Source of the DNA: Bacteroidetes bacterium QS_3_64_15
GTDB taxonomy: Bacteria > Bacteroidota > Rhodothermia > Rhodothermales > Salinibacteraceae
Assembly: GCA_003022565.1 (NCBI GenBank)
Contig: PXTN01000095.1
Coordinates: forward strand, 1-45,035
DNA: 45,035 nucleotides
Reading direction: 5' to 3'
Positions 7,633 through 43,459 of this stretch are shown one piece after another; within the stretch, counting starts at the first letter, position 1; every line of letters begins with the position of its first letter. Both the position numbers and the translations under genes were made by a program. Under the pieces are notes generated by a model. It did not search any database. It was not told the origin of the DNA and was given only the letters and a program-made list of their open reading frames with translations.

Positions 7633-7705
7633 GACGGCGGACGGTGGACCGCAGACGGCCGCTTCTCGGTGTTTTTCGGCGGTCTGCCGGCCGTCGACTG
7701 CGGTC
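7633..7705. repeat. Heptad-register inverted repeat (gacggcg type)
   Basis: The left arm at 7633-7660 is four tandem 7-base units: gacggcg, gacggtg, gaccgca, gacggcc. The right arm at 7678-7705, read on the other strand, is again four 7-base units: gaccgca, gtcgacg, gccggca, gaccgcc. The arms can pair imperfectly around a 17-base loop. It is intergenic, upstream of the cobalamin riboswitch. It belongs with the other heptad elements listed in this window. Confidence 0.75.
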
Positions 7706-7739
7706 CTCGCACATGAAGGCAGCCACGTCCGCGCTCAAC

Positions 7740-8030
7740 TCACAGTGTTGAAGTGCGACCCAATCTTCCAACCTTTAGAATCTGTCTGGTGGATGGATGC
7801 GAAGCCGGGACACAGTGGGCGAAGCCGCAAAAGGGCCCAAATGAGTCCCTGTATCGGGAGCAGAGCGGAAGCGAGGCGGACCGCACGGCCGAGACCGCCC
7901 GGTGCCTGCAGGCCACTGAGGAAACCGGGCCGTTCCGGCTTGCGCCACGGAAAATCTCGTGAAGGGATTGTGCTTTGTCGCGACGGTCGTCTACGTTGAA
8001 GGTTGATGTTGTTCTTTCACACACGCCACG
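7740..8030. other. Unassigned intergenic block between the heptad repeat and the riboswitch
   Basis: About 290 bases with no convincing gene. Several potential helices are visible: gggac near 7817 with gtccc near 7847, a nested gggc/gccc, and cccggt near 7899 with accggg near 7924 enclosing the palindrome gcctgcaggc. The repeated motif gcgaagccg occurs twice near 7800-7830. GTGCGAC at 7753-7759 resembles the start of bacterial group II introns, but no matching domain V was found. It may be a structured RNA, a decayed mobile element, or neither. Confidence 0.35.
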
Positions 8031-8034
8031 GGTT

Positions 8035-8365
8035 CTCGTCCCGGCGGTTTGCTGGGCGAGATGAAAAGGGAACGCCAGTGATCCCATTTTGGATTTTTGA
8101 TTGGGGATTTTGGATCTCATAATCCCCAGTCCAAAATCGTCAATCCAAAATCGGGAGAGTCTGGGGCTGTCCCCGCAACTGTGAGTCGAATGATGGATGC
8201 GTGCCGGAGACGGTTCGCCACTCCCCGATGGAGTTGTGCCAAATGCGTTCGGCACGGCTCATCGCGGGGGGAAGGGGAACCGTTGAGCGCATCCGTCTGC
8301 CGGTCGGCCGCGGCCTGTTTGCCGGGGTCCACGGGTTCGATGAGCCAGGAGACCTGCCTGTGTGC
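8035..8365 (+). promoter_or_regulatory. Cobalamin riboswitch with an inserted heptad hairpin
   Basis: The class-defining boxes occur in order: AAAAGGGAA (8064-8072) with gccagtga, GGCTGTCCCCGCAACTG (8165-8181), cgCCACT (near 8217), GGGGAAGGGG (near 8270), and the B12 box GAGCCAGGAGACCTGCC (8343-8359). Together these match the adenosyl/methylcobalamin-binding aptamer family. It precedes a BtuB-like receptor and a BtuG-like lipoprotein, the expected targets. Between the first two boxes, bases ~8082-8156 are an extra imperfect hairpin made of 7-base repeats. Without it, the flanking gccagtga and gagtctgg would close as in ordinary aptamers. Aptamer limits are approximate. The expression platform would be in 8366-8586. 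Confidence 0.88.
8085..8152. repeat. Heptad-register inverted repeat inside the riboswitch (gattttg type)
   Basis: Left arm 8085-8119 reads as five 7-base units: cattttg, gattttt, gattggg, gattttg, gatctca. The opposite strand of 8125-8152 reads gattttg, gattgac, gattttg, gactggg. The arms pair over most of their length, with the core ggggatt/aatcccc and closing tccc/ggga just outside. Local composition is AT-rich and unlike the aptamer around it, which supports insertion of a mobile or expanding element into the riboswitch. Confidence 0.85.
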
Positions 8366-8459
8366 GTGCCGCAGAGTCGATCTCGTCGACTCCTCTTTTC
8401 GCCAAGAGCCTCCGGGATCAGAGGCTTGTGGCGTGCCTGGCTCCCTCGTCTCCCTGTGT

Positions 8460-8503
8460 CGGGAGGAGTATCCCTTCTGTACGGGAGAAGTACCCCTTCC
8501 GTG
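8460..8503 (+). repeat. Two-copy 22-bp tandem repeat in the btuB leader
   Basis: Copies at 8460-8481 and 8482-8503 differ at only a few positions. Each contains a short inverted pair (gggag with a cccttc-type arm), so each can form a small hairpin or the two can pair alternatively. The position between the B12 box and the start codon at 8587 makes it a candidate part of the expression platform, which is inference. Confidence 0.6.
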
Positions 8504-8586
8504 CACGAGGTTGCTCGCCCCTGGTATCGATCCGGGGCGGGCCTGGAGCCGCCGCCCAAGCCTCGTCAGAGGTGAGGGCTTCTCCT

Positions 8587-10548
8587 ATGGATGCTCCCCA
8601 CATTGTACACTCCCGCCTCTGTGCGGCCCTCCTCATCGTCGTCGGTCTGTGCCTGGGACCGGCCGCCGCACAGCCGGTGCCTGCAGACCCAGTCGCGGCC
8701 GACACCAGTGACGTGCAGTGGGAGACGACCCTCCCCCCGCTTACCGTCACGGCCAGTCGGCTCCCCACGTCGCCCGCCGAGGCCCCGGCGCGCGTGTCGG
8801 TTTTCGACTCGTCGGCCCTCCGCACATCGGGGGCCTCATCGGTGGCCGGCCTTCTCGACGACCGGGCCGGGCTGCACGTCCGCCGCTACGGGGCGGGCGG
8901 ATTGGCCACCCCGGCGCTTCGGGGCACCGGGGCCTCCCAAACGGTCCTGCTGCTCGACGGGCAGCGCATCACCGACCCGCAGATCGGCCACCTCGACCTC
9001 TCCCTCCTTCCCACCGCGTTGCTCCGGTCGGTACGGGTGATGCACGGGCCCGCCTCCCCCCTCCACGGCTCCGACGGGCTCGGCGGGGCCATCAACCTCC
9101 AAACGCATCCGCCCTCCTCCTCGACCGAAGCGCGCCTGGCCGTGGAGGGCGGCGCGTTCGGTGCACGCGGCGGGAGTCTTCTTGTCAGCAGCGTCCTGAC
9201 GGACGTTACCTCCGTGGTCGCCGCCGTCGACTATCAGACGACCGACGGCGATTTTCCCTACACCGACGAGAGCCGATTCCCCCCGGAGACCGTGCACCGC
9301 CGCAATGCCGACCGCACACGCCAGTCTCTGTACGCCAGTGTGCAGTCTCGCGTGGCCGAGCATCAACTGCGGGTGTCCGGCTGGGGCACGCAGGCCGAGC
9401 GGGGGCTCCCGCCCACGAGCTCTACGGCCCCGGCCCGTGCGCGACAGTGGGACACACAGGTCCGGTTCTGGGGACGCGATCGCGTGCCGGTCGGCGAGGG
9501 CCGCCTTACCGTGTCGGGGCTTGCCCAGCGCACCCGCCTGCAGTACACCGATCCCACTCAGAACCTCGATCAGACCGGACGCACGGCGCTTGCCTCGCTG
9601 GAGACGACCCTTCGCCACCCGGTGTCGGGGCGGTGGACGATGATTGGCGGCGGATCCGGGAGCTATGCCCGCGCCCAACACCCGAGCCTGTCGGCCTCCG
9701 CCCACCAGCACCATGCCTCGGCCTTCATGGAGGGGACGGGGCGCTACGGGCGCCTCACTCTCTACCCGGCGCTGCGCACCGACGCGTACTGGATGCCGGC
9801 CGGCACCACGCGGTGGGCCATGAGTCCTCGGCTCGGCCTCAACTGGCAGCCCTTCGCCCGGTGGCCGGGACTTCATGTGAAGGCACAGATTGGCCGGTCC
9901 TTCCGAGTCCCCACCTTCAACGATCGGTACTGGCAACCGGGAGGAAATCCCGACCTGCGCCCCGAGCGGAGCTGGGGGGGCGACCTCGGGATCCGTCTCG
10001 ATTGGTCCCACGGCCACGCAGAACTGTCGGCCTTTGGGCACCGACGCCGCGATCAAATCACATGGCAGCCGACGGGCAACGGCTACTGGGCGCCCAAGAA
10101 CGTGCAGCGGGTCCGCGCCCTCGGGGGCGAGGCCTCAGTCGGGGGGGCCTGGTCGCTTCCATTCGGGGCCGACCTCCGTGGCGGCGTCACCTACACGATC
10201 ACCGACGCCCGCAACCGCACCGATCCGGGCTCGGACTCCTACAATGAGCCGCTCCGCTACGTCCCCCGCGACCAGCTGAAGGCCCACTCGACCCTCTCCT
10301 GGGGACCGGCCGTCCTCGCCCTCAACGCCCGCTACACGGGCCGCCGCTACGTCACGAGCGACGGATCCCAATTTTTGGAGGCATACGTGATTGCCGACAC
10401 ACAGCTCCGCCTCGAGCATGAGTTCGGGGGCGTTCGGACGGAGCTCTCCCTGAGGCTCGACAACGCGCTCGACACGGACTACGAAAGCGTGGGCGGCCGC
10501 CCGATGCCCCCGCGGCACGCTCGCCTACGCTTGCGTCTGATCCTCTAG
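8587..10548 (+). CDS. btuB: TonB-dependent outer-membrane receptor, BtuB-like (cobalamin uptake)
   Basis: A 653-residue outer-membrane transporter. The signal peptide ends near residue 22 (PAAAQ) and is followed by a TonB-box-like segment (PPLTVTAS). The plug domain includes VLLLDGQRITDPQIG and the GSDGLGGAINLQT block. A long beta-barrel ends in an aromatic-poor but typical strand, RHARLRLRLIL. Length fits BtuB rather than the longer SusC family. The upstream cobalamin riboswitch and the following BtuG-like lipoprotein support vitamin B12 as substrate. The ATG at 8587 gives the complete signal peptide and lies behind gaggtgagg. BtuB-type receptors pass cobalamin to BtuFCD; no ABC genes are in this window. 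Confidence 0.88.
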   Translation: MDAPHIVHSRLCAALLIVVGLCLGPAAAQPVPADPVAADTSDVQWETTLPPLTVTASRLPTSPAEAPARVSVFDSSALRTSGASSVAGLLDDRAGLHVRRYGAGGLATPALRGTGASQTVLLLDGQRITDPQIGHLDLSLLPTALLRSVRVMHGPASPLHGSDGLGGAINLQTHPPSSSTEARLAVEGGAFGARGGSLLVSSVLTDVTSVVAAVDYQTTDGDFPYTDESRFPPETVHRRNADRTRQSLYASVQSRVAEHQLRVSGWGTQAERGLPPTSSTAPARARQWDTQVRFWGRDRVPVGEGRLTVSGLAQRTRLQYTDPTQNLDQTGRTALASLETTLRHPVSGRWTMIGGGSGSYARAQHPSLSASAHQHHASAFMEGTGRYGRLTLYPALRTDAYWMPAGTTRWAMSPRLGLNWQPFARWPGLHVKAQIGRSFRVPTFNDRYWQPGGNPDLRPERSWGGDLGIRLDWSHGHAELSAFGHRRRDQITWQPTGNGYWAPKNVQRVRALGGEASVGGAWSLPFGADLRGGVTYTITDARNRTDPGSDSYNEPLRYVPRDQLKAHSTLSWGPAVLALNARYTGRRYVTSDGSQFLEAYVIADTQLRLEHEFGGVRTELSLRLDNALDTDYESVGGRPMPPRHARLRLRLIL

Positions 10549-10602
10549 CCCCACCCTTTGCATCCCTTGTCTCTTCATTCCTCCCCACCAATCCTCAAAC
10601 TT

Positions 10603-11655
10603 ATGACCTTTCGCCATCTTCCTCTCGCTGTTCTGACGGTTCTCCTCAGCCTCACCCTTGTGAGCTGCGACCTCCTCGGAACCGATGACGACGAATCTTC
10701 AATCGTCACCGATGGGGTGTACGTAGCCAATCAGGGCAACTTCGGCGACGGAAACGGCTCAGTAAGCCTCTACGATCCGAATACCGATGAGGTAACGAGT
10801 GAGGCAATCGGAAACCTGAACTCCATCGTCCAGAGCGTCGCTCTCCGAAACGACCGGCTCTACCTGGCCGCAAACTCGGGGGGACGCATCGATGTCTTTG
10901 ATGCCGACGACCAGACGCAGCAGCAGCAAGTGACCGGCCTGAGTAGCCCGCGTTACCTGACGTTCCCCGACGACGAAACCGCGTTTCTTACGAATCAGTC
11001 GTTTGGCGGCCCCTCCTCCGTCGCGGTGTTGGATACGGAAGGGTCCTCTCTCGACATGGCCGACGACATTGAGGTGCCGGGCACGCCCGAGGGCATCACG
11101 ACCACTGGCGACCGCGTGTACGCCGCCCTCGGGGGCTTTAGCGATACCAGCCTGGTGGCCGCCATCGACACCGACGATCAGACGCTCACCGAAACCATCG
11201 ACGTGGGATGCGCACCGCGGTACACCGTTGCCGACCGTGAGGACGACGTCTTTGTCGTCTGCAGCGACACCGCCGAGGTTGCCGTCCTCGACGGCTCTAG
11301 CGGAGAGGAGCAGGTCCGTCTCGACCTCCCGGCGCCGTCCTCAACGGTCGGACCCGGCCAGCCTGCCTACTACGCCCCGGACGTGGCGGAGCTATACATC
11401 GTCGCATCGGAGGACCAGATTGTTCGCGTCAACACGGCGACCAACAAGGTAACGGCGACGATCGGCCCTCTTGAGGGCGACGAAATCGGGGCCATCGGCT
11501 ACGACGCCGTCCGCGAAGAGCTGTACGTCGGTCGGGTCCCCGGCTTTACTGAGCGGGGCACCGTCACCATCCACGCGCGGGACGGGACGCAGACCGGCTC
11601 CTTCCAGGCCGGGGTCGCCCCCACGTATATCGACTTCCGTCGATTGGAAGAATGA
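10603..11655 (+). CDS. btuG: BtuG-like surface lipoprotein (DUF5074 / YncE-type beta-propeller)
   Basis: A 350-residue lipoprotein with lipobox LVSC (Cys about residue 21) and a repeated beta-propeller pattern, for example VYVANQGNFGDGNGSVSLYD and LYLAANSGGRIDVFD. The NxGNFG..NGS..YDP opening is what I associate with DUF5074 proteins. In Bacteroides, BtuG is a surface propeller that binds cobalamin tightly and caps BtuB. Here the gene follows the BtuB-like receptor by 54 bp under the same riboswitch, so a BtuG role is likely but inferred. The protein is markedly acidic, as expected for a halophile. The start at 10603 gives a compact signal sequence; an upstream GTG or ATG is less plausible. 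Confidence 0.82.
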   Translation: MTFRHLPLAVLTVLLSLTLVSCDLLGTDDDESSIVTDGVYVANQGNFGDGNGSVSLYDPNTDEVTSEAIGNLNSIVQSVALRNDRLYLAANSGGRIDVFDADDQTQQQQVTGLSSPRYLTFPDDETAFLTNQSFGGPSSVAVLDTEGSSLDMADDIEVPGTPEGITTTGDRVYAALGGFSDTSLVAAIDTDDQTLTETIDVGCAPRYTVADREDDVFVVCSDTAEVAVLDGSSGEEQVRLDLPAPSSTVGPGQPAYYAPDVAELYIVASEDQIVRVNTATNKVTATIGPLEGDEIGAIGYDAVREELYVGRVPGFTERGTVTIHARDGTQTGSFQAGVAPTYIDFRRLEE

Positions 11656-11719
11656 CGATCGATCCGCCGCGGCCGTCAGGGCGCCGCGCACGGTCCTCTC
11701 AGTTCCAGTTGCTTCCCCC

Positions 11720-11935
11720 ATGAACATTGACCGCTGCTACTGCTACGACCAGACGTTCGCCCACCTGAAGGCGATCGCCGACGAGACGGGCGCCTCGTCC
11801 ATCGAGGCCCTGCAAGAGCACGTCACGTTCGGCGAAAACTGTCAGTTGTGCCACCCGTACATCCGGCGGACGCTGACGACGGGTCAGACCTGTTTCCACG
11901 AAGTCCTCGAGGCCGAAGCACCAGACTCCCCGTGA
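11720..11935 (+). CDS. BFD-like [2Fe-2S] protein
   Basis: A 71-residue protein with Cys6, Cys8, Cys41 and Cys44 arranged as CxC-x32-CxxC, the pattern of bacterioferritin-associated-ferredoxin-like [2Fe-2S] domains. The helical linker between the pairs (SSIEALQEH) also fits the family. It sits 64 bp after the BtuG-like gene and 39 bp before a PIG-L deacetylase, so it is probably in the riboswitch-controlled transcript. A role in electron transfer for cobalamin handling (for example Co reduction) is an inference from context only. The protein is short but has clear family residues and a good ATG. Confidence 0.8.
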   Translation: MNIDRCYCYDQTFAHLKAIADETGASSIEALQEHVTFGENCQLCHPYIRRTLTTGQTCFHEVLEAEAPDSP

Positions 11936-11974
11936 GAACGGCGACCTTCTTCCCCAACCGCCCCCGTCTTGTTG

Positions 11975-12724
11975 ATGGCCACCCTCCTGTACGTCTTTCC
12001 TCACCCCGATGACGAATGCTTCGGGCCGGCTCCCGGCATGGCGCGGCAGCGGCGCGAGGGGCACGAGGTGCACCTGCTTACCCTCACGCGGGGCGAGGCG
12101 ACCTCGCAGCGCGAGCGCCTCGGCTGCTCGAAGGCCGAGATGGCCGAGACGCGCTACCAGGAGATGCAGGACGTCGCGGCCACGCTGGACCTCAATTCGC
12201 TGACTGTGCTGGAGTACCCAGACGGCCAACTGGCTGAGCTCAACCCGCTGGTGCTGGAGGACGCGATTGCCGACCACCTCCACGCGCGGACGCCGGACGT
12301 CGTCGTGACCTACCCGGTGCACGGCGTCAGCGGCCACCCCGACCATCTGGTGACCCACGCCCTCGTGAAGCGCGTGGCGTGTGCCCTCCGACAGGACGGC
12401 GCTGCCGTGCCCCGCCGGCTCGCGTTCTACACGCTCCCGCCCGCTCCCGACGACGCAGACCGCCCCCCTCACCTCCACCACTCCTCGCCGTCCCTCATCG
12501 ACTGCATGCTTTCGTTCGACGCGACGGATCTTGAGACGGGACGCGAGGCGCTGCATTGCTACGAGACCTACCGTCCCGTCATCGAGGAGCATCGCCCCCT
12601 GGACGCGATTGGCGACCACATCTCGTTCGGGCTCTTCGGGGAGGCGCACGAGCCTCGGCTCTCGTCGCTGACGGAGGCCCTGCCCGACGCGGAGACGGGA
12701 CTGGACCTCTCAGCCAGGTCCTGA
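11975..12724 (+). CDS. PIG-L family (LmbE-like) deacetylase
   Basis: A 249-residue zinc-dependent N-deacetylase. The diagnostic PHPDDE motif is at residues ~10-15, and the third metal ligand lies in HGVSGHPDHLVTH, as in BshB and MshB. The family removes acetyl groups from N-acetylglucosaminyl conjugates, including the bacillithiol precursor GlcNAc-malate; the substrate here cannot be assigned. Two TTG codons precede the ATG at 11975, which I chose because the hydrophobic first strand begins there. Its close spacing to the BFD-like gene suggests membership of the same cobalamin-regulated cluster, although a later independent promoter is possible. Confidence 0.85.
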   Translation: MATLLYVFPHPDDECFGPAPGMARQRREGHEVHLLTLTRGEATSQRERLGCSKAEMAETRYQEMQDVAATLDLNSLTVLEYPDGQLAELNPLVLEDAIADHLHARTPDVVVTYPVHGVSGHPDHLVTHALVKRVACALRQDGAAVPRRLAFYTLPPAPDDADRPPHLHHSSPSLIDCMLSFDATDLETGREALHCYETYRPVIEEHRPLDAIGDHISFGLFGEAHEPRLSSLTEALPDAETGLDLSARS

Positions 12725-12853
12725 GGGCGAACACGAGCCCATTTTCAATTTGTTAACGGCCTCACGGTCCCGGTTGGGGAACGCAGGGACCGGTCGAAGA
12801 GGTACGACTCGACAGATTGTTTTTCCACCACCTGGGCTGGTAGCCTGAACGCT

Positions 12854-13912
12854 GTGTCGTTTCTTTCCCCGCTGCCTCCCTTCGTCAGTCGCCTGTCGCT
12901 CAAAATAGGGGCCGTGGCCGGTCTCGTCGCCGGGCTTGGGGGACTTCTGGCGCCGAGTGCAGAGCCCTGGGCCGCTCTGGCCGCTGGGCTGGCCGTCGCA
13001 GGCACAGTGTACGCCACTGGCCACGTCTGGCTGCACCGCCGCCTTCGACACCTGCAGTCGATCCTTCGCCGGATCCGGACGGACGAGCTCGACGACGTAT
13101 CGCCCCCGTCCGATTCCGAAGGGGACGAGCTCGACACTCTCCTGTGGGAGGTGTACCGCACCGGCCAGAGCCTGGACAATGAGATTCAAGAGCTCAAGGA
13201 GATGGAGAGCTATCGGCGCGAGTTCATCGGCAACGTCTCTCACGAACTCAAGACTCCGATCTTCTCCGTTCAGGGCTTTGCCGAAACCCTTCTCGACGGC
13301 GCCCTGGACGACGAGTCGGTCAACCGCACGTTCCTAGAAAAAATCCTGCAACACGCCAACCGGCTCGATAATCTGGCTCGCGACCTGTCGACGATCACGA
13401 AGATCGAAACCGAAGAGCTGGACATGACGAGTGAGGCGTTCGACGTGGCGGATCTGTTCGAGGAGGCCCTTGAGTCGGTGGAGATCCGGGCTGAGGAAAA
13501 GGGAATCACGCCCCGGCAGGACGTCGCGGCGGGCCTCCCGGAGGTTTACGGGGACTTCGACCGCCTTCGCCGGGTGCTGGTCAACCTGCTGGACAACGCG
13601 ATCAAGTACAACGAAGAGGGCGGTGCGGTGGAGCTGCAGGCCGAGGTCCGGAGCGACGCGGTCGAAATCCGCGTCGTGGACGATGGGATCGGCATCCCCG
13701 CCGAAGATCTCTCGCGCCTCACCGAGCGCTTCTACCGGGTCGACAAGAGCCGATCCCGGAACCAGGGGGGGACCGGGCTCGGCCTTGCGATTGTGAAACA
13801 CATTCTGGGGGCCCACGACTGCGAACTGCACGTCGAAAGCACGCCCGGCGAGGGCTCTGCGTTTAGCTTTACCCTACCGACCGCCTCGAAGTCGAGCCTG
13901 CAGCCGGCGTGA
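12854..13912 (+). CDS. Membrane sensor histidine kinase (PhoR-like)
   Basis: A 352-residue kinase. Two hydrophobic segments (about residues 17-34 and 38-56) form a hairpin anchor with almost no periplasmic sensor. These are followed by a HAMP-like or linker region, the dimerisation/phosphoacceptor helix NVSHELKTP with His130, and an ATPase domain with the N box (NLLDNAIKYN), G1 (DDGIGIP) and G2 (GGTGLGLAIVKHI). Organisation and the YRREFIGNVSHELKTPI block resemble PhoR. GTG at 12854 starts the protein; no ATG fits better. No response regulator is adjacent, so it is an orphan kinase, and its partner is unknown. Confidence 0.9.
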   Translation: MSFLSPLPPFVSRLSLKIGAVAGLVAGLGGLLAPSAEPWAALAAGLAVAGTVYATGHVWLHRRLRHLQSILRRIRTDELDDVSPPSDSEGDELDTLLWEVYRTGQSLDNEIQELKEMESYRREFIGNVSHELKTPIFSVQGFAETLLDGALDDESVNRTFLEKILQHANRLDNLARDLSTITKIETEELDMTSEAFDVADLFEEALESVEIRAEEKGITPRQDVAAGLPEVYGDFDRLRRVLVNLLDNAIKYNEEGGAVELQAEVRSDAVEIRVVDDGIGIPAEDLSRLTERFYRVDKSRSRNQGGTGLGLAIVKHILGAHDCELHVESTPGEGSAFSFTLPTASKSSLQPA

Positions 13913-14213
13913 GTCTCCATCCTACGTCGCCGGAACGGAGCGGGCGCCCGGCGAACGGAGCGATGCGCATCTCCTCTATTCGCCATGCAGGTGTAGCCCG
14001 GGAGGACGTGCCCTGGTACGGAGATGCAGTGGCGCTTCCGAACAAGCGGGCCGCCCTCCGGACCCGAACGCCAAAGATCCTCCCGGCGCATTTGGTAAAG
14101 GCGACGTAAATTTTGGGTGTACGATCTTCGAAAAGAGTGCCCGCTTTTCTACTATTATAGTCCCCTTCCATTTGTGGTAACAGCGCCGTCTACTGGCCCA
14201 TCTTTTCCCTACC
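13913..14213. other. Intergenic region without a recognised gene
   Basis: About 300 bases between the histidine kinase and a small membrane-peptide frame. The first half is GC-rich with a direct repeat of gaacggagcg (near 13935 and 13954). The second half becomes AT-rich (taaattttggg near 14107 and tactattatag near 14151) and probably holds a promoter for the genes after 14214; this is inference from composition only. Confidence 0.4.
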
Positions 14214-14306: not shown

Positions 14307-14471
14307 GGAGGAGCGAGCCGCGACCGTGGCCCGGACGCCGAAGCTGAGGAGACGTATGGTTTTTGTGGAAACATCGACGGAGGATGAACCTGCGTCTGCC
14401 GGCCTCGTTATGGTTGGCGTCTTTTTGTCTCCGTCGCACTTTTCTTCCCACGACCTCGCGCCCGTAGTTTC

Positions 14472-22216: not shown

Positions 22217-22266
<50 letters not shown>

Positions 22267-30693: not shown

Positions 30694-30775
30694 TGTATCG
30701 CGTCGTATTGCGTATTTCGTATTGCGCGTGTCGGTAAATGGACGCCGTACGCACCACGCATCACGCAATACGTCG
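30694..30775. repeat. Heptad-register inverted repeat (cgtattg type)
   Basis: Left arm: tgtatcg (30694), then after a cgt the units cgtattg, cgtattt, cgtattg, cgcgtgt (30704-30731). The opposite strand of the right arm reads cgtattg, cgtgatg, cgtggtg, cgtacgg. The two arms share the same leading units and pair imperfectly around a short loop. It lies between the 3' ends of dapA and mreD, where transcription converges, so it may act as a two-way terminator. Confidence 0.8.
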
Positions 30776-35753: not shown

Positions 35754-35814
35754 TGAGCGTTTGGGCGTCTGGGAGAAAAACGTCCATACGCGCCCACTCC
35801 CCATTCGCTATTGC
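35754..35814. repeat. Heptad-register inverted repeat (gcgaatg type)
   Basis: The opposite strand of 35780-35814 reads gcgaatg, gggagtg, ggcgcgt, atggacg in 7-base register. The left side (tgagcgt, ttgggcg, tctggga) can pair with it imperfectly. The element sits between the convergent msrA and comF-like genes and its right arm overlaps the last bases of the latter. Confidence 0.6.
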
Positions 35815-36957: not shown

Positions 36958-36975
36958 CGACGGGCCCTCCCTCAT

Positions 36976-37001
36976 TCCATTCGCATTATCCATTTGCATT
37001 A
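36976..37001. repeat. Two-copy 13-bp tandem repeat
   Basis: The unit tccattcgcatta (36976-36988) is followed directly by tccatttgcatta (36989-37001), one mismatch. It lies 15 bp upstream of the glycosyltransferase start. Copy-number change here would alter the leader of that gene. Confidence 0.75.
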
Positions 37002-37016
37002 CCGCTCGGATTCCCA

Positions 37017-38168
37017 ATGAACATTCTCGCCCTCGAACCCTGGCACAGCGGGTCCCGACGACGCTTTCTGGAGGGGCTTGCCGACCACAGTGCCCACGAC
37101 ATCCGCACCGTCACGATGCCGGGGCGCTTCTGGCAATGGCGGATGGAGGGAGGCGGCGTGACGCTGGCCCAGAAGGTGCGGTCGGTCGTGGACGAGGGCT
37201 TCCATCCGGACCTCCTCTTCGCCACGGACATGGTGAACCTGCCGGCGCTCTTGTCGCTGTCCCGCCCCGATCTCAACGACGTGCCCGCCGTCGCCTACTT
37301 CCACGAGAACCAGCTCACGTATCCCGTCCCGCCTGACGAGGAGCGCGAACGGGCTTACGCGATCACGAACTACCTGTCGGCCCTCGCGGCCGATCAGGTC
37401 GCGTTCAACACGCAGTCGCACTTCAACGAGTTCACCGAGGCGCTTCCCCAGCTTCTCCGCGACTTCCCGGACTTCACGAACATGCACACCGTGCGCGACA
37501 TCCGCGACAAGAGCACGGTGCTCCACCCCGGCATTGACCTGCGGGCCCATGACGAATACGCGGGCACCCGCACGCAACGCACCCCGCGGGGCACCGCTGC
37601 ACCCATCGTGCTCTGGAACCAGCGGTGGGAATACGACAAGAACCCGTCCGGCTTCTTCCGCATGATGAACCGGCTCGACGACGCGGGGGTGCCCTTCCAG
37701 CTCATCCTGGCCGGCAAGCACTTCTACGAGCAGCCGGAGGCGTTCGAGCAGGCCTTCGAGCGCTACGCGGGGCGCATTCTCCACTACGGCTACGCCGAGG
37801 ATTTCGACGAGTACAGCCGCCTGCTGCACCGGGCCGACGTGGTGGTCTCCACGGCTCGGCACGAGTTTTTCGGGGTTGCCATCCAGGAGGCCATCTACTG
37901 CGGCTGCCACCCGGTGCTGCCGAACCGCCTCAGCTACCCGGAGCTCATTCCGGAGACGCACCACCGCCCCCTCCTCCACGCCCCGGTGCTCTACGACGAC
38001 GAGGACCACCTCTTCGACGTGCTGCGGTCCATCCTGGAGCGGGAGGAGCGCCCTCTCCCGCCCGATACGCTGCGCCAGATGCCGGAGCCGCTCGACTGGC
38101 GCACCCACGCCGCAGACTACGACGACCTGTTCGAGCGCGTCGCCGAGGGGGCGATGGTCCCGGCGTAG
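37017..38168 (+). CDS. Glycosyltransferase of the tRNA-queuosine alpha-mannosyltransferase type (DUF3524/GTDC1)
   Basis: A 383-residue GT-B protein. The N-terminal half begins MNILALEPWHSGSRRRFLEGL and contains PAVAYFHENQLTYP and FNTQSHFNEF; these match the DUF3524 domain. The C-terminal half is a GT4-type domain (VLWNQRWEYDKNPSGFF, LAGKHFY, VVVSTARHEFFGVAIQEAIYCGC). In vertebrates the family member QTMAN puts mannose on queuosine of tRNA-Asp. A bacterial member probably modifies queuosine or a related base, by inference. ATG at 37017. tRNA-Glu and tRNA-His genes lie just downstream. Confidence 0.87.
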   Translation: MNILALEPWHSGSRRRFLEGLADHSAHDIRTVTMPGRFWQWRMEGGGVTLAQKVRSVVDEGFHPDLLFATDMVNLPALLSLSRPDLNDVPAVAYFHENQLTYPVPPDEERERAYAITNYLSALAADQVAFNTQSHFNEFTEALPQLLRDFPDFTNMHTVRDIRDKSTVLHPGIDLRAHDEYAGTRTQRTPRGTAAPIVLWNQRWEYDKNPSGFFRMMNRLDDAGVPFQLILAGKHFYEQPEAFEQAFERYAGRILHYGYAEDFDEYSRLLHRADVVVSTARHEFFGVAIQEAIYCGCHPVLPNRLSYPELIPETHHRPLLHAPVLYDDEDHLFDVLRSILEREERPLPPDTLRQMPEPLDWRTHAADYDDLFERVAEGAMVPA

Positions 38169-38402
38169 GCGTAAACCAGGGCAACCGCATCACCCACGGA
38201 GACGTCCTGCACCGTCGCTCTGAGCTTGACTCAGAGCCTATCCAGCAGCACGGATAAACCCTGTCGGTCGGATGGATGGGCTCCAACCCAAGTTTGGAGC
38301 GACGAAGGTAGTGTTTTCATGACTGGAAAGTCGGATTCGAGCAGTACTCTCGAGGAAGAACCGCTGATGCGATTGCCGTGAGGTGCAAACAAGGTTCAAA
38401 AC

Positions 38403-38423
38403 AAAAAAGGCTCCGGGAGAGCC
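38403..38423 (-). terminator. Terminator after tRNA-Glu
   Basis: On the minus strand ggctctcccggagcc forms a 5-bp GC-rich stem followed at once by six T residues. It lies about 30 bases after the tRNA-Glu 3' end and is a textbook intrinsic terminator. Confidence 0.88.
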
Positions 38424-38453
38424 TTCCGAAGCCTGGTGAAAAATAGAAAATGG

Positions 38454-38528
38454 TACCGCGTACGGGATTTGAACCCGTGTTACCGGCGTGAAAGGCCGGC
38501 GTCCTAGACCAGGCTAGACGAACGCGGC
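38454..38528 (-). tRNA. tRNA-Glu (TTC)
   Basis: Minus-strand cloverleaf: acceptor gccgcgt pairs with acgcggt, and the anticodon stem gccgg/ccggc carries loop ctttcac (anticodon TTC). The T arm is cacgg-gttcaaat-cccgt-like. The CCA end is encoded (38451-38453). It follows tRNA-His on the same strand. Confidence 0.95.
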
Positions 38529-38536
38529 ACAAAAAT

Positions 38537-38560
38537 GGGCCCGGCCTTTCGGCCCGGCCT
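38537..38560 (-). terminator. Hairpin with T run between tRNA-His and tRNA-Glu
   Basis: On the minus strand ggccgggcc, a gaaa tetraloop, and ggccgggccc form a stem with one central G-G mismatch, followed by cattttt. This lies between the two tRNA genes and looks like a terminator for tRNA-His, so the two tRNAs may be separate transcripts or partly attenuated. Confidence 0.7.
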
Positions 38561-38568
38561 CGGTGCGG

Positions 38569-38643
38569 GGTGAGTGGCGGGATTTGAACCCGCGACCTCC
38601 AGGACCACAACCTGGCGCTCTAACCAACTGAGCTACACCCACC
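38569..38643 (-). tRNA. tRNA-His (GTG)
   Basis: Minus-strand cloverleaf with the histidine hallmark: an extra G at -1 (base 38643) opposite discriminator C (38569). The acceptor gtgggtg pairs with cactcac (one G-T), the anticodon loop ttgtggt carries GTG, and the T arm is gcggg-ttcaaat-cccgc. The GTG anticodon is a substrate for queuosine modification in bacteria. Confidence 0.97.
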
Positions 38644-38779
38644 ATTGTCGGAATGACGGACCTCAGCGTTCAGTCACTCCTTCGGACGCACATTCGCGCC
38701 AATACGTTTCGTGGAGGCTCGGATCGAGGAGCGTTCCCGCCGTGAACTTTCCGTGGACCCCCTGCCTGTCGGGCTGAAG

Positions 38780-38833
38780 CGTGACCCGTGAATCGTGAGG
38801 GTCGTCACACGTCACTCCTCACGCATCACGGCG
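38780..38833. repeat. Heptad-register inverted repeat (cgtgaNN type)
   Basis: Left units are cgtgacc, cgtgaat, cgtgagg (38780-38800). The opposite strand of the right arm reads cgtgatg, cgtgagg, agtgacg. The arms pair imperfectly around a short loop. It is intergenic, between the tRNA-His promoter side and the 3' end of ribH. Confidence 0.78.
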
Positions 38834-38881
38834 CCTAGCAGCAGGGAGGCCTATCAGCCCCAGACCGCACGCAGCACTCTG

Positions 38882-39355
38882 CTAGGAACCGTCAATCTGC
38901 GGCATCAGAGTGACCATTTCGATGGCGGCCTCCGCGGCCTCGCGGCCCTTGTTGCCCGCCTTCGACCCGGCCCGCTCAATCGCCTGGTCGACCGTGTCGG
39001 TGGTCAGAACGCCGAACAGGACCGGCACCTCGGTGTCGAGCGAGGCCTGCATCGTGCCGCTCGTGGCGCCGGAGCACACGTAGTCGAAGTGGGGCGTGTC
39101 GCCGCGGATGACGGTGCCGAGGCAGATCACCGCGTCGTACTCGCCGGACCGGGCGCACTTCTGGGCCGCAACGGGAATCTCCCACGAGCCGGGCACGTGG
39201 GCCACCGTCACGTCATCGAGGTCGGCCCCGTGGCGCTCCAGGGTGTTGAGGGCGCCGTCGAGCAGGTCGTCGGTAATGCGTTCGTTGAAGCGGCCGACAA
39301 TGATCGCGAACCGGTGGTCATCAACGACAAGGTCTCCTTCGAGGTGAGTCGGCAT
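38882..39355 (-). CDS. ribH: 6,7-dimethyl-8-ribityllumazine synthase
   Basis: Penultimate enzyme of riboflavin synthesis, joining the ribityl-diaminouracil with dihydroxybutanone phosphate. The 157-residue protein has [35 protein letters not shown], the active-site loop [15 protein letters not shown] with the catalytic His, and [12 protein letters not shown]...[20 protein letters not shown]. Family-length, ATG at 39355. It follows the PHP gene by 49 bp on the same strand, so likely co-transcribed. Other rib genes are elsewhere. Confidence 0.97.
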
Positions 39356-39404
39356 CGAGGCAGGGAGTGATCGGCACGGAAGAGCGGGCGTATTGACGCC
39401 GCAG

Positions 39405-40256
39405 TTACAGAGCGGCGTCCCGGAATCGTTCCCACTGCGACACCGTGAGACCGACGGTACCGAGCGCCCTCTCGTCCGCGTCCGATCCGCCGTGATAATC
39501 CGATCCGCCGGTTACCAGCAGGTCGTGCGAGCGGCAGATGTTTTTGTAGTAGTCGACGAGGTAGTCGGGATGACTCGAGAAGTGGCACTCAATGCCGTCC
39601 AGGCCATCCCCGCGGAGCGCCGTGAGCAAAGAGCCCGGCACCCACTGTCCAGGGTGGGCCAGCACCGCCACGCCCCCGGCGGCGTGGAGGACGTCGATCG
39701 CTTCCGTCGCGGGCTGGGTGGGAGCAGACACGTATGCCAGCCGGTCCGCGTCCAGATACTGCTCGAACGCAGCCTCGTAGCTGTCTACGTGCTCTTCCTC
39801 CACCAGCGCCCGGGCGAGATGGGGCCGTCCGGGCGCTGCAGTGGCCGCGACGTGCCGCTCGACGACTTCGGGGGACACCTGGACGCCGGTCTCCGAGAGC
39901 CGCCGCACCATCCGATCGAGGCGCTCCCGTCGCCGACGTGTGAAGGACGAGAGATAGTCGGTGAGGGCGGGGTGTCCGGGATCCATCCCGTACCCGAGGA
40001 GATGCACGGAGTGTCCGTCCACCTCGACGCTGAGCTCCACGCCGTTCACGAGTCGAATGTCGTGAGTCTGCGCTGCGGCGCGGGCCGCCTCAAGGCCGGC
40101 GGTCGTATCGTGATCCGTCACGGAAAGCACCCGCACGTCACGCTCCGCCGCCCGCCGCACCAGCGCGTCGGGGGCCCGAATTCCGTCGGAGCAGTGGGTA
40201 TGTGCGTGAAGGTCGGCGTACACCGTCTCGGAAGAGGTCGATCGCTGCTGGGGCAT
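39405..40256 (-). CDS. PHP-domain phosphoesterase (RNase AM / 3',5'-bisphosphate phosphatase type)
   Basis: A 283-residue protein with all PHP metal motifs: [11 protein letters not shown] (motif I), [13 protein letters not shown] (II), [19 protein letters not shown] (III), VLAHPGQW, and the final GGSDYHG. The layout matches the TrpH/YciV family, which hydrolyses nucleotide 3',5'-bisphosphates or trims RNA 5' ends. The middle helical insertion ([19 protein letters not shown]...) is also typical. ATG at 40256 is preferred; a longer frame would run into the leader of the divergent HIT gene. Upstream of ribH on the same strand. Confidence 0.88.
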
Positions 40257-40405
40257 GCCGGTTCTCGTTCTTTGCCTCTCGACGGTCGCTGGCTTTGACG
40301 CACTGCTCCCACGCTCCCACGCCCCTCTACCGAACTGCCCCCTGTCTCCTGAGTTCAACGACATCCATCTGATTAGCTGCCCCCTCCAACCAAAGGCTTC
40401 GGCCG

Positions 40406-40942
40406 ATGGATCACATGTGGAGTCCCTGGCGCTCGGCGTACGTGTCCGAGGCCAAAACCCGAGACCTCGCCGACGACGAGTCGCTGTTCACGGCCCTGCT
40501 GAACGAGGAACGGGACGCGGAGAACCTGATCCTGTGGCGGGGCGAGCACATGTTCATCATCATGAACCGGCACCCCTACAACAACGGCCACTTGCTGATC
40601 GTCCCCTACCGCGAGGTCACCCAGTACGATGCCCTGACGCTCACCGAGCAACAGGCCCTCGCCGCCGCCATCGACCGCTGCATGGGATGGATCCGAAACG
40701 CCCTCTCGCCCGACGGCTTCAACGTCGGAATGAACCTGGGCCGGGCGGCCGGGGCCGGCATTCCGGAGCACCTCCACGCCCACGTCGTGCCACGGTGGGA
40801 GGGCGATACCAATTTTATGCCCACCACGGCGGACACGAAGGTGCTCCCCGAAGACCTGCAGACGACCTACGAAAAGCTCCGCGCCCCCATGTCCCCGGAG
40901 GCTCGCGCCTCGACGAAGAACGACACGCAGGTGGCTGAATGA
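40406..40942 (+). CDS. HIT-family nucleotide hydrolase/transferase
   Basis: A 178-residue HIT protein. The core contains FIIMNRHPYNNGHLLIVPYREV, a family block, and the histidine triad HLHAHVVPRW; the N-terminal MDHMWSPWRSAYV stretch is characteristic of the Ap4A-phosphorylase-like branch found in many bacteria. These enzymes act on dinucleoside polyphosphates or nucleotidyl conjugates; the substrate is unassigned. ATG at 40406, 149 bp from the divergent PHP gene. Confidence 0.92.
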   Translation: MDHMWSPWRSAYVSEAKTRDLADDESLFTALLNEERDAENLILWRGEHMFIIMNRHPYNNGHLLIVPYREVTQYDALTLTEQQALAAAIDRCMGWIRNALSPDGFNVGMNLGRAAGAGIPEHLHAHVVPRWEGDTNFMPTTADTKVLPEDLQTTYEKLRAPMSPEARASTKNDTQVAE

Positions 40943-40996
40943 GACCGTCCCTCCTTCCCCTCTAATTCATTTGCGGAAGAGCGTCAGACCTCCGTT

Positions 40997-41497
40997 CTAC
41001 TCCTGCTGGTCGAGCAACCAGCGATACAGGTCGGGTGAGGCGCGAAACGTGGTGTCTCGTAGGACTTTGGCGACCTGAACAGCATCGACATGTTCTTTCT
41101 TGACGGCTGCTCCGAGCACACCGATCGTTCCGGTTACCGTCAGTCCACGATTGCGGGCGGCATCCCGGCCTGCTCGTTCGTCGATGAGGAGAAGCCCTGC
41201 GTCCTCCCTCTCGGCCAGCAGGATGGCGTCCCACTCGCCCGGATCGAGGCGCGTCAGGTCCTCCTCTCCACTGCGGCGTGAACGCGGACGTCGGCCCTCG
41301 GAGAGCCCCTCTCGTGTCGTGATCCATGAAGGAGAAGACAGCATCCACTCTCGGACGGGATCGGGGCCTTCCGGGTGACTCAACTCTCGACGGACAGCCT
41401 CCGGAATCAATACGTGGTCGTAGAGCGCAGGAAGCAGTTCCTCCTCCCCGATGAGTATCAGATAGCTGATCGGGGAAGTATTACTGACGACGATCAC
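40997..41497 (-). CDS. PIN-like toxin (DUF3368)
   Basis: A 166-residue PIN-fold protein. Acidic and serine residues at the expected places are visible: VVSNTSPISYL (the first Asp of PIN is Asn here), the Glu in IPEAVRREL, LDPGEWDAILLAE, and LLIDERAGRDAARNRGL. The end (VAKVLRDTTFRASPDLYRWLL) matches DUF3368. Such proteins pair with UPF0175 antitoxins; one lies 60 bp upstream on the same strand. The Asp-to-Asn change in the N-terminal motif could weaken nuclease activity. Translation starts with GTG at 41497. Confidence 0.85.
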   Translation of the reverse strand: MIVVSNTSPISYLILIGEEELLPALYDHVLIPEAVRRELSHPEGPDPVREWMLSSPSWITTREGLSEGRRPRSRRSGEEDLTRLDPGEWDAILLAEREDAGLLLIDERAGRDAARNRGLTVTGTIGVLGAAVKKEHVDAVQVAKVLRDTTFRASPDLYRWLLDQQE

Positions 41498-41557
41498 GAG
41501 GCGGGCGGTCTCTGGAAAGAAGGATGGCCGGTCAGAGAGGCCGCTGCTTCAGGACAG

Positions 41558-41824
41558 CTACTCCCTAGCGGCCTGGAGGGCCGCCTCCAGGTCTTCTGCC
41601 AGCTCCTCCTCGGAGTAGTCCAGAAGCGCCCCCCGCTCCTTGAGAAAGGCTTCGGTCTGCATCCGAGTCTCGTGACCGAGCAGCGCGCAGACCTCCCCGA
41701 GCGTGAGCGACCCGTCGCGGTACCCCTGAGCGGCAACCGATTCGAGGGCGCCTCGGGAGAGGTCCCCCCACTTCTGCTTGAGGCGGCGGGCAAGGTCTTC
41801 GGGAAGCGAGAAGGCCACGTCCAT
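41558..41824 (-). CDS. UPF0175-family antitoxin
   Basis: An 88-residue helical protein. DVAFSLPEDLARRLKQKWGDLSRGALESVAAQGYRDGSLTLGEVCALLG is the UPF0175 DNA-binding part, and the C-terminal acidic helix (LDYSEEELAEDLEAAL) would wrap the toxin. It is first in the pair with the PIN gene, as usual for autoregulated type II modules. ATG at 41824. An RHS gene fragment lies upstream, suggesting an unstable locus. Confidence 0.87.
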   Translation of the reverse strand: MDVAFSLPEDLARRLKQKWGDLSRGALESVAAQGYRDGSLTLGEVCALLGHETRMQTEAFLKERGALLDYSEEELAEDLEAALQAARE

Positions 41825-41913
41825 GGCTCTGAATCGAGGCGTGAGCAATAGAAGAGCGGGGAAAAGAAAAGCAGACAGCCGCCGAGTAAGGTCCCTTGTC
41901 GACTCCCCTCGAC

Positions 41914-42147
41914 ATAGTCCCGCATCTCCTCCACGTTTGCCGAGTCGTCCATCACTACCCGCACCGACCTGAGATGGTCCTTCACGTAGTACTTCCGCTC
42001 CGGCCGCACGACCCGCACGGTCCTCGTCTCCGTGTCGACGCTTCCCTCGTCGTCGGTCACCGTCAGCTCGATGGTCTGCTCGGCCTTCAGCGTGTCCCCC
42101 CAGCCCAAACCGGTAGCGAAACTGCTTTCCCCTCCGCGTTGGTGGAG
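41914..42147 (-). pseudogene. Fragment of a PKD/RHS-repeat protein
   Basis: The minus-strand frame reads a PKD-like end (TIELTVTDDEGSVDTETRTVRVV) followed by YYVKDHLRSVRVVMDD.ANVEEMRDY, which is the opening of the RHS-repeat-associated core. It stops matching exactly where the conserved core should continue. No start codon of the expected kind and no upstream gene body are present, so it is a remnant of a larger exported polymorphic-toxin or adhesin-type gene. The break coincides with a small inverted repeat, tgtcga-ctcccc-tcgaca (41898-41915). The rest of 41825-42355 has no gene that I can support. Confidence 0.7.
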
Positions 42148-42355
42148 TCAGACTCCCGCTGTTTGTACGCTGACAGTCGGCCAAGTCCGGAGGAACCTGC
42201 AGGTGGTCGATGAAAATGTAACATTCGACCAGTCGGTGTTGTAAATTGGGCACGGTCGTCACGGCAGAACGGTGACGGACAAAGCGAACACGTCATCTTG
42301 CATCCCGAGCACTTCGGCGGCCAACTCGCGCTCAACCTGTGACTAACGTTCAGTT

Positions 42356-43396
42356 ATGAGTACTGCCTCTGTTCAGGACCGCCGCACCGCCGTCGACGCG
42401 TACAACTTTCGGGGTGTGCACCCGCACGTCCGCTTCGGCACCGCCAGCGACCGGTACGGGGGGTGGCTCGGCCAGATCTACCCGCCCGAGCGCTACGCCG
42501 ATCGCGTCTCGACCCGATCCCGGAAGATGGGGGGCGAGACCTTCACGGAGCGGCGCGTGCCCATCGAATCAGTGGGCGACTACTTCGAACACTTCGAGGT
42601 GCTGGAGATCGACTTCACCTTCTACCGGCCGCTGCTGGAGGAAGACGACGAGCCGGGCTCCAACTACTTTGTCCTCTCCAACTACGCCGACCATGCTCCC
42701 GAGGACGCCTCCTTCCTCCTCAAGGCCCCGCAGAAGTTCTTCGCCCGTAGCCTGCGCCGGAACGGCGAGTTCGTCGACAACCTGAGCTTCCTCGACGCCG
42801 AGAGCTACGTCGAGACCTTCCACGAACCCGCCCTCGACATCCTCGGCGATCGGCTCGACGGGATCATCTTTCAGCAGGAGTACCAGCGCGTCGCCGACAG
42901 TCCCAGTCCCGCCGAAAACGTCGACCAACTCGACGAGTTCTTCACGACGCTGCCCGGCACGCCCCAGGCGCACATCGAACTCCGCTCGGAGCATCTCTTG
43001 AAAGATCCGTACTTCGACTGGCTCTCCACGCGGGGCCTCGGGCACGTCTTCAGCCACTGGACCTGGCTACCTCCCATCCGCCGACAGTGGGCCACGAGCG
43101 GGGAGCGTCTCACCGCGGGCAACGATCAGGCTGTGACGCGCCTCCTCACCCCCCGCGACATGAAGTACGCCGAGGCGTACGCCACGGCCCATCCCTTCGA
43201 GGAGCCGGTCTCCGAACTGAGTGAGACCGAGCAGGCTCGCGACATGGTGCTCGACACGACGGCCCTCGCTTTCCGGGCCGAATCGCAGAACGCACTGCTC
43301 AACGTGGTGGCGAACAACCGGGCCTGGGGCAACGCGCCGGACCTGAACCGCGCCATCGCCCATCGCATTCTCGACGAACTTGAGGGTCGCAAATAG
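42356..43396 (+). CDS. DUF72 (YecE-like) TIM-barrel protein
   Basis: A 346-residue cytoplasmic protein of the DUF72 family. Recognisable blocks are VRFGTASDRYGGWLGQIYPPERYADR at the start, VLEIDFTFYRPL, FLLKAPQKFFARSL, and the ELRSEHLL..YFDWLSTRGLGHVFSHW segment. DUF72 has a TIM-barrel fold; no reaction is established. The N-terminal ATG at 42356 is clear. It stands alone, downstream of a 530-bp degenerate region, and convergent with ruvX. Confidence 0.9.
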   Translation: MSTASVQDRRTAVDAYNFRGVHPHVRFGTASDRYGGWLGQIYPPERYADRVSTRSRKMGGETFTERRVPIESVGDYFEHFEVLEIDFTFYRPLLEEDDEPGSNYFVLSNYADHAPEDASFLLKAPQKFFARSLRRNGEFVDNLSFLDAESYVETFHEPALDILGDRLDGIIFQQEYQRVADSPSPAENVDQLDEFFTTLPGTPQAHIELRSEHLLKDPYFDWLSTRGLGHVFSHWTWLPPIRRQWATSGERLTAGNDQAVTRLLTPRDMKYAEAYATAHPFEEPVSELSETEQARDMVLDTTALAFRAESQNALLNVVANNRAWGNAPDLNRAIAHRILDELEGRK

Positions 43397-43459
43397 AGAG
43401 TCGAAGGACGAAAACGGGTCTCGCCTCTCGCCCCCAACGCTCTGCTCTCAACGCTTTAC
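43396..43459. repeat. Heptad-register repeat between DUF72 and ruvX
   Basis: The 64 bases divide cleanly into 7-base units: gagagtc, gaaggac, gaaaacg, ggtctcg, cctctcg, one spacer c, ccccaac, gctctgc, tctcaac, gctttac. The two halves are complementary in part (gagag with ctctc). It lies between convergent genes and includes the ruvX stop codon. Confidence 0.65.

What the first reader, a model, noticed from the sequence alone, without database searches (positions are those of the whole stretch)
7633..43459. Family of intergenic heptad-register inverted repeats with different units at each site
Six intergenic sites (7633-7705, 8085-8152, 30694-30775, 35754-35814, 38780-38833, 43396-43459) read in strict 7-base periodicity, and in most the second half is the reverse complement of a similar heptad series. 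Yet the unit differs per site: gacggcg, gattttg, cgtattg, gcgaatg, cgtgaNN and gaNNNNN types. Length, period and geometry are conserved while sequence is not, which is unusual for a mobile element and suggests a process that builds or maintains 7-base hairpins. Heptanucleotide repeats (STRR) are known in heterocystous cyanobacteria; I do not recall an inverted, unit-variable form in this phylum.
Basis: partly seen in the sequence, partly recalled or inferred. Interest (0 to 1): 0.8.

Follow-up and report, generated by a model that had tools for sequence, protein, structure and literature searches.

The report
Seven-base repeat hairpins in Salinibacter
Salt-loving Salinibacter bacteria carry many short DNA hairpins between their genes, built from slightly varying seven-base repeats that nearly always point the same way and are often swapped for hairpins of different sequence between close relatives, which suggests an unidentified process that builds such repeats.

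Summary
Five of six sites have significant 7-base periodicity; site 4 has period 8; site 6 does not fold. The window is not cyanobacterial: its genome falls in the genus of Salinibacter ruber (Rhodothermota). Heptad arrays are in excess there and fall into recurring unit classes (CGTATTG, CGTGATG, GATTTTG and others), so units do not differ at every site. Three features stand out. (1) Polarity: the G-rich strand nearly always runs toward the loop, while other intergenic hairpins show no bias. (2) Turnover: between two genomes about 95% identical, array-bearing spacers are often replaced (7 of 13 below 70% identity, against 8 of 228), sometimes by another unit class. (3) Site 2 sits on a stem tip of a cobalamin riboswitch; two other species carry heptads of another class on that tip. 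This closely parallels the Nostoc trnL intron P6b stem. Heptad hairpins lack T-tracts and are rare in divergent spacers, so they are not classical terminators; neither a reverse transcriptase nor a Y1 transposase is needed. Best reading: fast-turnover, non-coding repeats that spread by copying and slip by heptads. A new variant of known heptameric repeats; what builds them is unknown.

The parts
7633..7705 (.). Site 1: hairpin of degenerate GACGGCG-type heptads (arms 29, loop 15). The G-rich polarity cannot be read in this G+C-only class.
   Evidence: lag 7 34 of 66, p 0.001; fold z -1.9; arms
8085..8152 (+). Site 2: hairpin of GATTTTG-type heptads on the tip of a stem of the cobalamin riboswitch
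   Evidence: lag 7 35 of 61, 0 of 1000 shuffles; fold z -3.9; insertion between model positions 58 and 59; same unit at two other places of G000
8014..8375 (+). Cobalamin riboswitch (RF00174) that holds site 2
   Evidence: 63.9 bits against a gathering score of 31.5; over the cut-off in 11 of 13 genus genomes
8362..10548 (+). TonB-dependent receptor gene downstream of the riboswitch
   Evidence: PF00593 and PF07715; relatives behind all 11 riboswitches compared
30694..30775 (.). Site 3: hairpin, left arm CGTATTG-type, right arm a mix of CGTATTG- and CGTGATG-type heptads; between dapA and a convergent mreD-like gene
   Evidence: lag 7 40 of 75, 0 of 1000 shuffles; fold z -1.7; the unit recurs in the genus
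35754..35814 (.). Site 4: inverted repeat with period 8 rather than 7, between msrA and a convergent comF-like gene
   Evidence: lag 7 p 0.076, fold z -1.6; lag 8 24 of 53, p 0.0005; heptad hairpin of another unit at this junction in G010
38780..38833 (.). Site 5: hairpin of CGTGATG-type heptads between a tRNA-His gene and the 3' end of the lumazine synthase gene
   Evidence: lag 7 28 of 47, 0 of 1000 shuffles; fold z -2.7
43396..43459 (.). Site 6: degenerate heptad series, no stable hairpin, at the convergent junction with ruvX
   Evidence: lag 7 30 of 57, 0 of 1000 shuffles; fold z +0.4

Best explanation
These are members of a dispersed, non-coding repeat population of Salinibacter: stem-loops of roughly 50-100 bp whose arms are degenerate tandem heptamers of several recurring classes, the G-rich strand of each arm pointing at the loop. 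Most likely they are neutral or selfish DNA. New arms or whole hairpins arise by copying from other copies during replication or repair (template switching or conversion), they grow and shrink partly by 7- or 14-base slippage, and they replace what stood in the same spacer before. They persist where a self-folding hairpin does little harm: spacers that do not hold two promoters, and tips of RNA stems such as that of the cobalamin riboswitch. Shown: recurrence of classes, polarity, turnover, some whole-heptad length changes, different classes on one riboswitch tip. Inferred: copying as the route of spread, neutrality, and that polarity reflects how the arms are laid down (for instance growth of G-rich 3' ends).
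For: Classes recur: 28 and 25 of 114 arrays; the exact CGTATTG hairpin in 13 of 244 genomes of the class, 4 of 89 genera, with 0 for the reversed pattern, and the loops listed nearly all differ apart from orthologues. Polarity: 41 of 41 paired arrays G/T-left, G>C 36, equal 5, C>G 0; 28 of 31 against 2 for heptad hairpins, 26 against 27 for other hairpins; 45 matches against 0 with the arms exchanged in 27 family genomes; 36 of 45 neighbouring array pairs convergent, 1 divergent. Turnover: 7 of 13 array-bearing spacers below 70% identity against 8 of 228, P = 1e-6, with swaps of unit class. Slippage: 6 of 19 indels in arrays divisible by 7 against 16 of 150. Tolerance: divergent spacers 3 against 21 expected by bases. 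Riboswitch tip: GATTTTG in G000, GAGT-type in G010 and G008.
Against: Copying has not been seen: no donor was traced and loops are not copied along. Strict polarity across classes does not follow from copying or slippage alone. Paired heptads of the two arms are less alike than in permuted pairs in the CGTA class (0.622 against 0.677), which fold-back copying would not give; the CGTGA class shows the same direction without significance. In CGTA-class arms neighbouring heptads are identical in only 7 of 195 comparisons, which simple slippage would not give. 13 of 19 indels in arrays are not multiples of 7.
Confidence: 0.45

Rival explanations
1. Functional RNA hairpins: selection keeps a stem in transcripts (3' ends, leaders, riboswitch tip), for stability or termination, and does not care about its sequence.
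For: 10 of 11 riboswitches compared keep a long hairpin on the same tip although the sequences differ; divergent spacers hold few arrays (3 against 21 expected by bases).
Against: No T-tract at 40 heptad hairpins against 43 of 244 others; convergent spacers not enriched (12 against 13 expected) and tandem arrays not nearer the stop (34 of 71); polarity absent from other hairpins; most junctions of relatives lack the hairpin.
Confidence: 0.2
2. A MITE- or REP/BIME-like family moved by a transposase acting in trans.
For: Dispersed classes, inverted pairs with variable linkers, one CGTATTG hairpin on plasmid pSR84.
Against: In the strain pairs I saw replacement of spacer sequence and no clean insertion with a target duplication (by eye); loops and outer ends vary; Y1_Tnp is in only 6 of 13 genomes and lacks in G004 and G007 (99% complete, 2 and 7 strict hairpins). 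Other transposases were not tested.
Confidence: 0.15
3. End extension: an enzyme adds G-rich 7-base repeats to both 3' ends of a break, and the ends are then joined. This gives two arms pointing at a random loop, like a head-to-head telomere fusion.
For: Polarity over unrelated units; unrelated loops; hybrid hairpins with arms of different class, such as C46 10416-10533 and C1 4663-4852 of G000; single arms (64 of 105 arrays have no partner within 90 bp). A repeat-making bacterial reverse transcriptase, DRT10, is described (passages of PMC12632851).
Against: No RVT_1 domain in 9 of 13 genomes, among them G006, G004 and G007 (99% complete), which carry 4, 2 and 7 strict hairpins; the unit shown for DRT10 in the passages is 9 nt and the product is cDNA, not chromosome; no other candidate enzyme found.
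Confidence: 0.1
4. Chance or base composition.
For: Site 4 fails at lag 7 and site 6 does not fold; spacer-wide mean autocorrelation is only mildly raised at lag 7 (z 3.2 to 5.9) and lags 3 and 5 are raised too in several sets.
Against: Windowed counts single out lag 7, and lag 8 less so, among lags not divisible by three; the exact CGTATTG hairpin recurs in 13 genomes with 0 for the reversed pattern.
Confidence: 0.02

Closest known systems
Nostoc and Calothrix trnL (tRNA-Leu UAA) group I intron P6b stem, Class I TDNGATT and Class II NNTGAGT (PMC4476775, passages seen)
   Same: Hairpin built on 7-base repeats at the tip region of a functional RNA; two unit classes; one class replaced by the other between relatives; structure kept. 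GATTTTG fits Class I by rotation; single heptads such as GAGTTCT (G008) and GAGTTAT (G000 C38) fit Class II.
   Different: Described there for one intron stem; here spread over spacers of a genome, with more classes, in another phylum.
GGGAATC (GGGANTN) repeats of Xanthomonas (PMC4692102, section 10 read and passages)
   Same: Degenerate 7-base arrays, mostly intergenic, dispersed; 70 (Xcc) and 75 (Xac) convergent pairs, G-rich strands facing each other
   Different: One unit family per genome; homologous repeats found in the same context in Xac for 83% (passage), so more stable than the Salinibacter pair seen here; studied as G-quadruplexes
Cyanobacterial STRR heptamers, including those inside RNase P RNA (Vioque 1997, seen only as a reference-list entry; details recalled)
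   Same: Short tandem heptamers, dispersed, also inside a structured RNA
   Different: Units and inverted order not compared here
TAACTGA repeats of Beggiatoaceae, Cyanobacteria and Bacteroidetes (PMC4679880, passages seen)
   Same: Abundant intergenic heptamers over distant lineages
   Different: Direct repeats; one inverted case reported among 170 sets
REP/BIME elements with RAYT (recalled)
   Same: Inverted pairs with variable linkers, extragenic
   Different: Heptad periodicity within an arm; a Y1 transposase is not required

Membership tests
Heptameric tandem repeats of bacteria (broad sense) | tandem units of 7 bases, dispersed in spacers, in excess over other periods | tested here: met
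   16 clusters against 0-2 at lags 4, 5, 10, 11, 13; lag 8 also raised (7)
Cyanobacterial STRR | the STRR unit sequences | not tested
   units are recalled only; no cyanobacterial sequence was obtained (one search failed)
Nostoc trnL P6b heptad stem | units of Class I TDNGATT or Class II NNTGAGT | tested here: inconclusive
   GATTTTG fits Class I; of the GAGT-type heptads some fit Class II, others (GAGTGTC, GAGTTCC) do not; CGTATTG and CGTGATG fit neither
Nostoc trnL P6b heptad stem | heptad hairpin in one RNA stem with classes swapped between relatives | tested here: met
   cobalamin riboswitch tip: GATTTTG in G000, GAGT-type in G010 and G008, lag-7 p < 0.001 each; a different RNA, so an analogue and not the same locus
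Xanthomonas GGGAATC pairs | convergent orientation of G-rich arms | tested here: met
Xanthomonas GGGAATC pairs | GGGANTN unit | tested here: not met
   no such class among the 17 classes with 2 or more arrays listed
Intrinsic terminators | T-tract after the stem | tested here: not met
   0 of 40 heptad hairpins, 43 of 244 others
REP/BIME with RAYT | Y1 transposase in the carrier genome | tested here: not met
   Y1_Tnp in 6 of 13 genomes; not found in carriers G004, G005, G007 (99% complete) and G000
MITE | fixed ends and target-site duplications | tested here: inconclusive
   none seen by eye in strain pairs; no systematic test
Telomerase- or DRT10-like repeat synthesis | reverse transcriptase in the carrier genome | tested here: not met
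   PF00078 in 4 of 13 genomes; not found in G004, G006, G007 (99% complete) or G000

The most novel reading that the evidence does not exclude
Bacteria of several phyla possess an undescribed activity that lays G-rich 7-base repeats onto DNA 3' ends (without the reverse transcriptase of telomerase), and head-to-head joining of two such ends leaves the convergent heptad hairpins seen here. The shared period, the shared polarity over unrelated units, the hybrid hairpins and the rapid replacement of spacers would be its footprints.
Probability: 0.1. Interest if true: 0.92.

Novelty: new variant of a known kind. Interest (0 to 1): 0.62.

Why it matters
Heptameric repeats have been noted in scattered bacteria with no accepted origin (PMC4692102, introduction passages). 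Here several unit classes share one genome, one period and one strand polarity, and turn over between genomes 95% alike. One carrier, S. ruber DSM 13855, is a named strain, so the question of what makes a 7-base hairpin becomes directly testable. The riboswitch tip shows such hairpins living inside a structured RNA outside cyanobacteria.

Tried and rejected
Mean autocorrelation over whole spacers was too weak a test; 21-base windows were used instead. Fold-back copying of one arm into the other should make paired heptads alike; they are less alike than permuted pairs in the CGTA class (the CGTGA class not significant). The 14-base alternation is strong in Salinibacter (neighbours identical 30 of 704, next-nearest 78 of 521) and not seen in 80 loci of other bacteria (36 of 327, 22 of 249). 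A reverse transcriptase or a Y1 transposase as a necessary partner was rejected for the carriers tested. Classical terminators were rejected. The dapA scan of genome contigs gave only distant phyla and did not name the organism; its 80 loci served as an outside sample. A plasmid search with a GATTTTG hairpin found nothing. GTGATGC hairpins gave 2 viral stretches; GAGTTAT hairpins gave none in either orientation. Paper searches for an earlier description in Salinibacter: one search listed one paper, on Thermomicrobium; the 10 papers listed of 4,715 do not hold the word Salinibacter; the library holds open-licence papers only, so absence from print is not shown.
Full report
What the window is. 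The window is contig C95 of a 2.62 Mb, 84% complete genome, G000. The tools place 12 further held genomes in its genus. One of them, G006, has a second contig of 35,505 bp whose first 5 kb match plasmid NC_007678.1 (35,505 bp) of Salinibacter ruber DSM 13855 at 100%. A CGTATTG hairpin of G000 finds one record among 72,556 plasmid records, S. ruber M8 pSR84. So this is Salinibacter in the tool's sense of a genus (Rhodothermota), not a cyanobacterium.

The six sites. All are present. Sites 1, 2, 3, 5 and 6 have significant lag-7 matches; site 4 does not and has period 8. Fold z-scores run from -3.9 (site 2) to +0.4 (site 6). Site 2 lies inside a cobalamin riboswitch. Sites 3, 4 and 6 lie at convergent gene junctions by my own simple gene calls.

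Genus-wide excess. In 176 kb of G000 contigs not chosen for hits, clusters with at least 16 of 21 lag-7 matches number 16, against 0-2 at lags 4, 5, 10, 11 and 13, and 7 at lag 8. In 800 kb each of G005 and G006 lag 7 gives 27 and 22; lags 4, 5, 10, 11 and 13 give 0-5 and 1-2; lag 8 gives 8 and 11, lag 14 22 and 13, lag 16 11 and 10, lag 17 8 and 8. In small samples (14-60 kb each) of nine other genus members lag 7 gives 0-2, no more than other lags in most of them, so density there is not measured. Of 114 arrays at the looser threshold of 15, 28 are of the CGTATTG class, 25 CGTGATG, 9 GATTTTG, 6 GAGTGAC, the rest smaller.

Distribution of two classes. In 244 genomes of the class, the exact pattern CGTATTGCGTA-N8..38-TACGCAATACG matches in 13 genomes of 4 genera: 10 of the 13 genus members, two more of the family (G200, G203) and G186 of another family with 8 matches; the reversed control matches in none. 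The exact GATTTTG hairpin matches in 6 of 244 genomes, of 6 genera. These exact patterns miss degenerate copies.

Polarity. Of 105 arrays in the genus stretches, 41 have a reverse-complement partner on one side within 90 bp (about 2 expected from shuffled units). In all 41 the left arm is G/T-rich; G>C in 36, equal in 5, C>G in none (both arms of one hairpin can be counted). By a separate hairpin finder 31 heptad hairpins have G>C left arms in 28, C>G in 2, equal in 1; 62 others have 26, 27 and 9; 3 of 96 fell between the two thresholds and were left out. In the 27 family genomes the CGTATTG pattern has 45 matches (a few overlapping), and none with the arms exchanged. For GATTTTG in viral contigs there are 11 matches and, exchanged, 1; by eye the exchanged one, and two of the eleven that are copies of each other, lack further heptads. 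Of 45 neighbouring array pairs 36 are convergent and 1 divergent.

Beyond the genus. In 80 loci (1.41 Mb) of other bacteria, brought in by dapA and so not chosen for repeats, lag 7 gives 51 clusters against 4-14 at lags 4, 5, 8, 10, 11 and 13 and 24 at lag 14; 24 loci contribute, by their titles mostly Bacteroidota, a few of them low in complexity. There 10 of 53 arrays have a partner (about 2 expected); G>C left in 8, equal in 2, C>G in none, while the G/T measure is 5 to 5. In 40 of these 80 genomes an exact GAATGAA hairpin gave 2 matches and the exchanged form none, too few to weigh.

Turnover. G005 and G006 are about 95% identical over aligned parts. Of 315 spacers compared, 13 hold an array; 7 of these are below 70% identity, against 8 of 228 spacers of like length without an array (P = 1e-6) and 14 of all 284 without; 18 spacers between the two thresholds were left out. 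Examples by eye: CGTATTG against CGTGATG at one after-stop position (400 kb block b, G006 250507 and G005 249912); a CGTGATG hairpin facing an octad hairpin; same class with a new loop; one arm kept while the other half is replaced; an arm longer by about five 14-base units (G005 167938, block b). Other array-bearing spacers are 87-97% identical, hairpin included. Among indels of 5-80 nt, 6 of 19 in array context are multiples of 7 (7, 7, 7, 14, 35 and 49 nt), elsewhere 16 of 150 (P = 0.02); so most indels in arrays are not whole heptads in these alignments.

Orthologous junctions of the window sites. At sites 3 (10 relatives compared), 5 (4) and 6 (4) none shows the hairpin of the window; at site 4 (10) G010 alone has a heptad hairpin, with a CGAATNN unit (by eye; G003 has a 14-base repeat at site 3).

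The riboswitch. Cobalamin riboswitches over the family cut-off were found in 11 of 13 genomes, all 11 next to a relative of the window's TonB receptor. The stem tip that carries site 2 holds GATTTTG heptads in G000 and GAGT-type heptads in G010 and G008 (lag-7 p < 0.001 each); G007 (p 0.16), G003 and G004 (p about 0.09) are doubtful; G001, G002, G005 and G006 have long hairpins without period 7; G012 has a short loop. This matches the Nostoc trnL P6b stem: two heptad classes, similar structure, one replaced by the other (PMC4476775, passages).

Structure of the arms. In 42 de-duplicated CGTA-class hairpins neighbouring heptads are identical in 7 of 195 comparisons and next-nearest in 60 of 111, an alternation such as TTG, TTT, TTG; paired heptads of the two arms agree less than in permuted pairings (0.622 against 0.677; 0.0002 of permutations as low). 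In 18 CGTGA-class hairpins the direction is the same but not significant. The alternation is not seen in the 80 outside loci. I read it as counter-selection of perfect repeats and perfect palindromes, or as descent from asymmetric ancestors; the data do not decide.

Function. Arrays lie in tandem spacers 71, convergent 12, divergent 3 (expected by bases 52, 13, 21); 48 further lag-7 sites fell in called genes and were left out; in tandem spacers 34 of 71 are nearer the stop than the start. None of 40 heptad hairpins has a T-tract, 43 of 244 others have. So they are not ordinary terminators, and rarity in divergent spacers fits tolerance rather than use.

Partners. Reverse transcriptase domains were found in 4 of 13 genomes and Y1_Tnp in 6 of 13. 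G004 and G007, rated 99% complete, lack both and have 2 and 7 strict hairpins; G006 lacks the reverse transcriptase and has 4. Other enzymes were not tested.

Conclusion. A known kind in a new variant: multi-class, strand-polar, fast-turnover heptameric hairpins. Copying plus slippage is my best guess at the mechanism (0.45). The shared polarity, which that guess does not explain by itself, is the observation most worth pursuing.

Noticed in passing
22220-22264: A run of 45 A in a 64% G+C contig, possibly an assembly artefact.
   Followed up: no
7412-7441: A period-8 array of TCATTTTG just after the stop of the gene at 6068-7408.
   Followed up: no
L158 15336-15409, L161 9470-9515, L175 8893-8922: Octad arrays of GGGCGTNT type in G000, one with an inverted partner: a period-8 counterpart of the heptads.
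   Followed up: partly
L036-L115: Excess of period 7 in 80 unselected loci of other bacteria, with many different units (GAATGAA, GAGTTAA, GTGATAA and others).
   Followed up: partly
L195 1501-1582 (NC_014157.1 37427-37508): A CGTATTG-type hairpin between rfbA and rfbB on S. ruber M8 plasmid pSR84.
   Followed up: no
L170 14720-14811; L157 6777-6814: Heptads directly in front of start codons in G000 (rpsD-like and carB-like by eye), where G005 and G006 have arrays of other units.
   Followed up: partly
L307 1-5000: A Y-family DNA polymerase gene is annotated on several S. ruber plasmids under the match.
   Followed up: no
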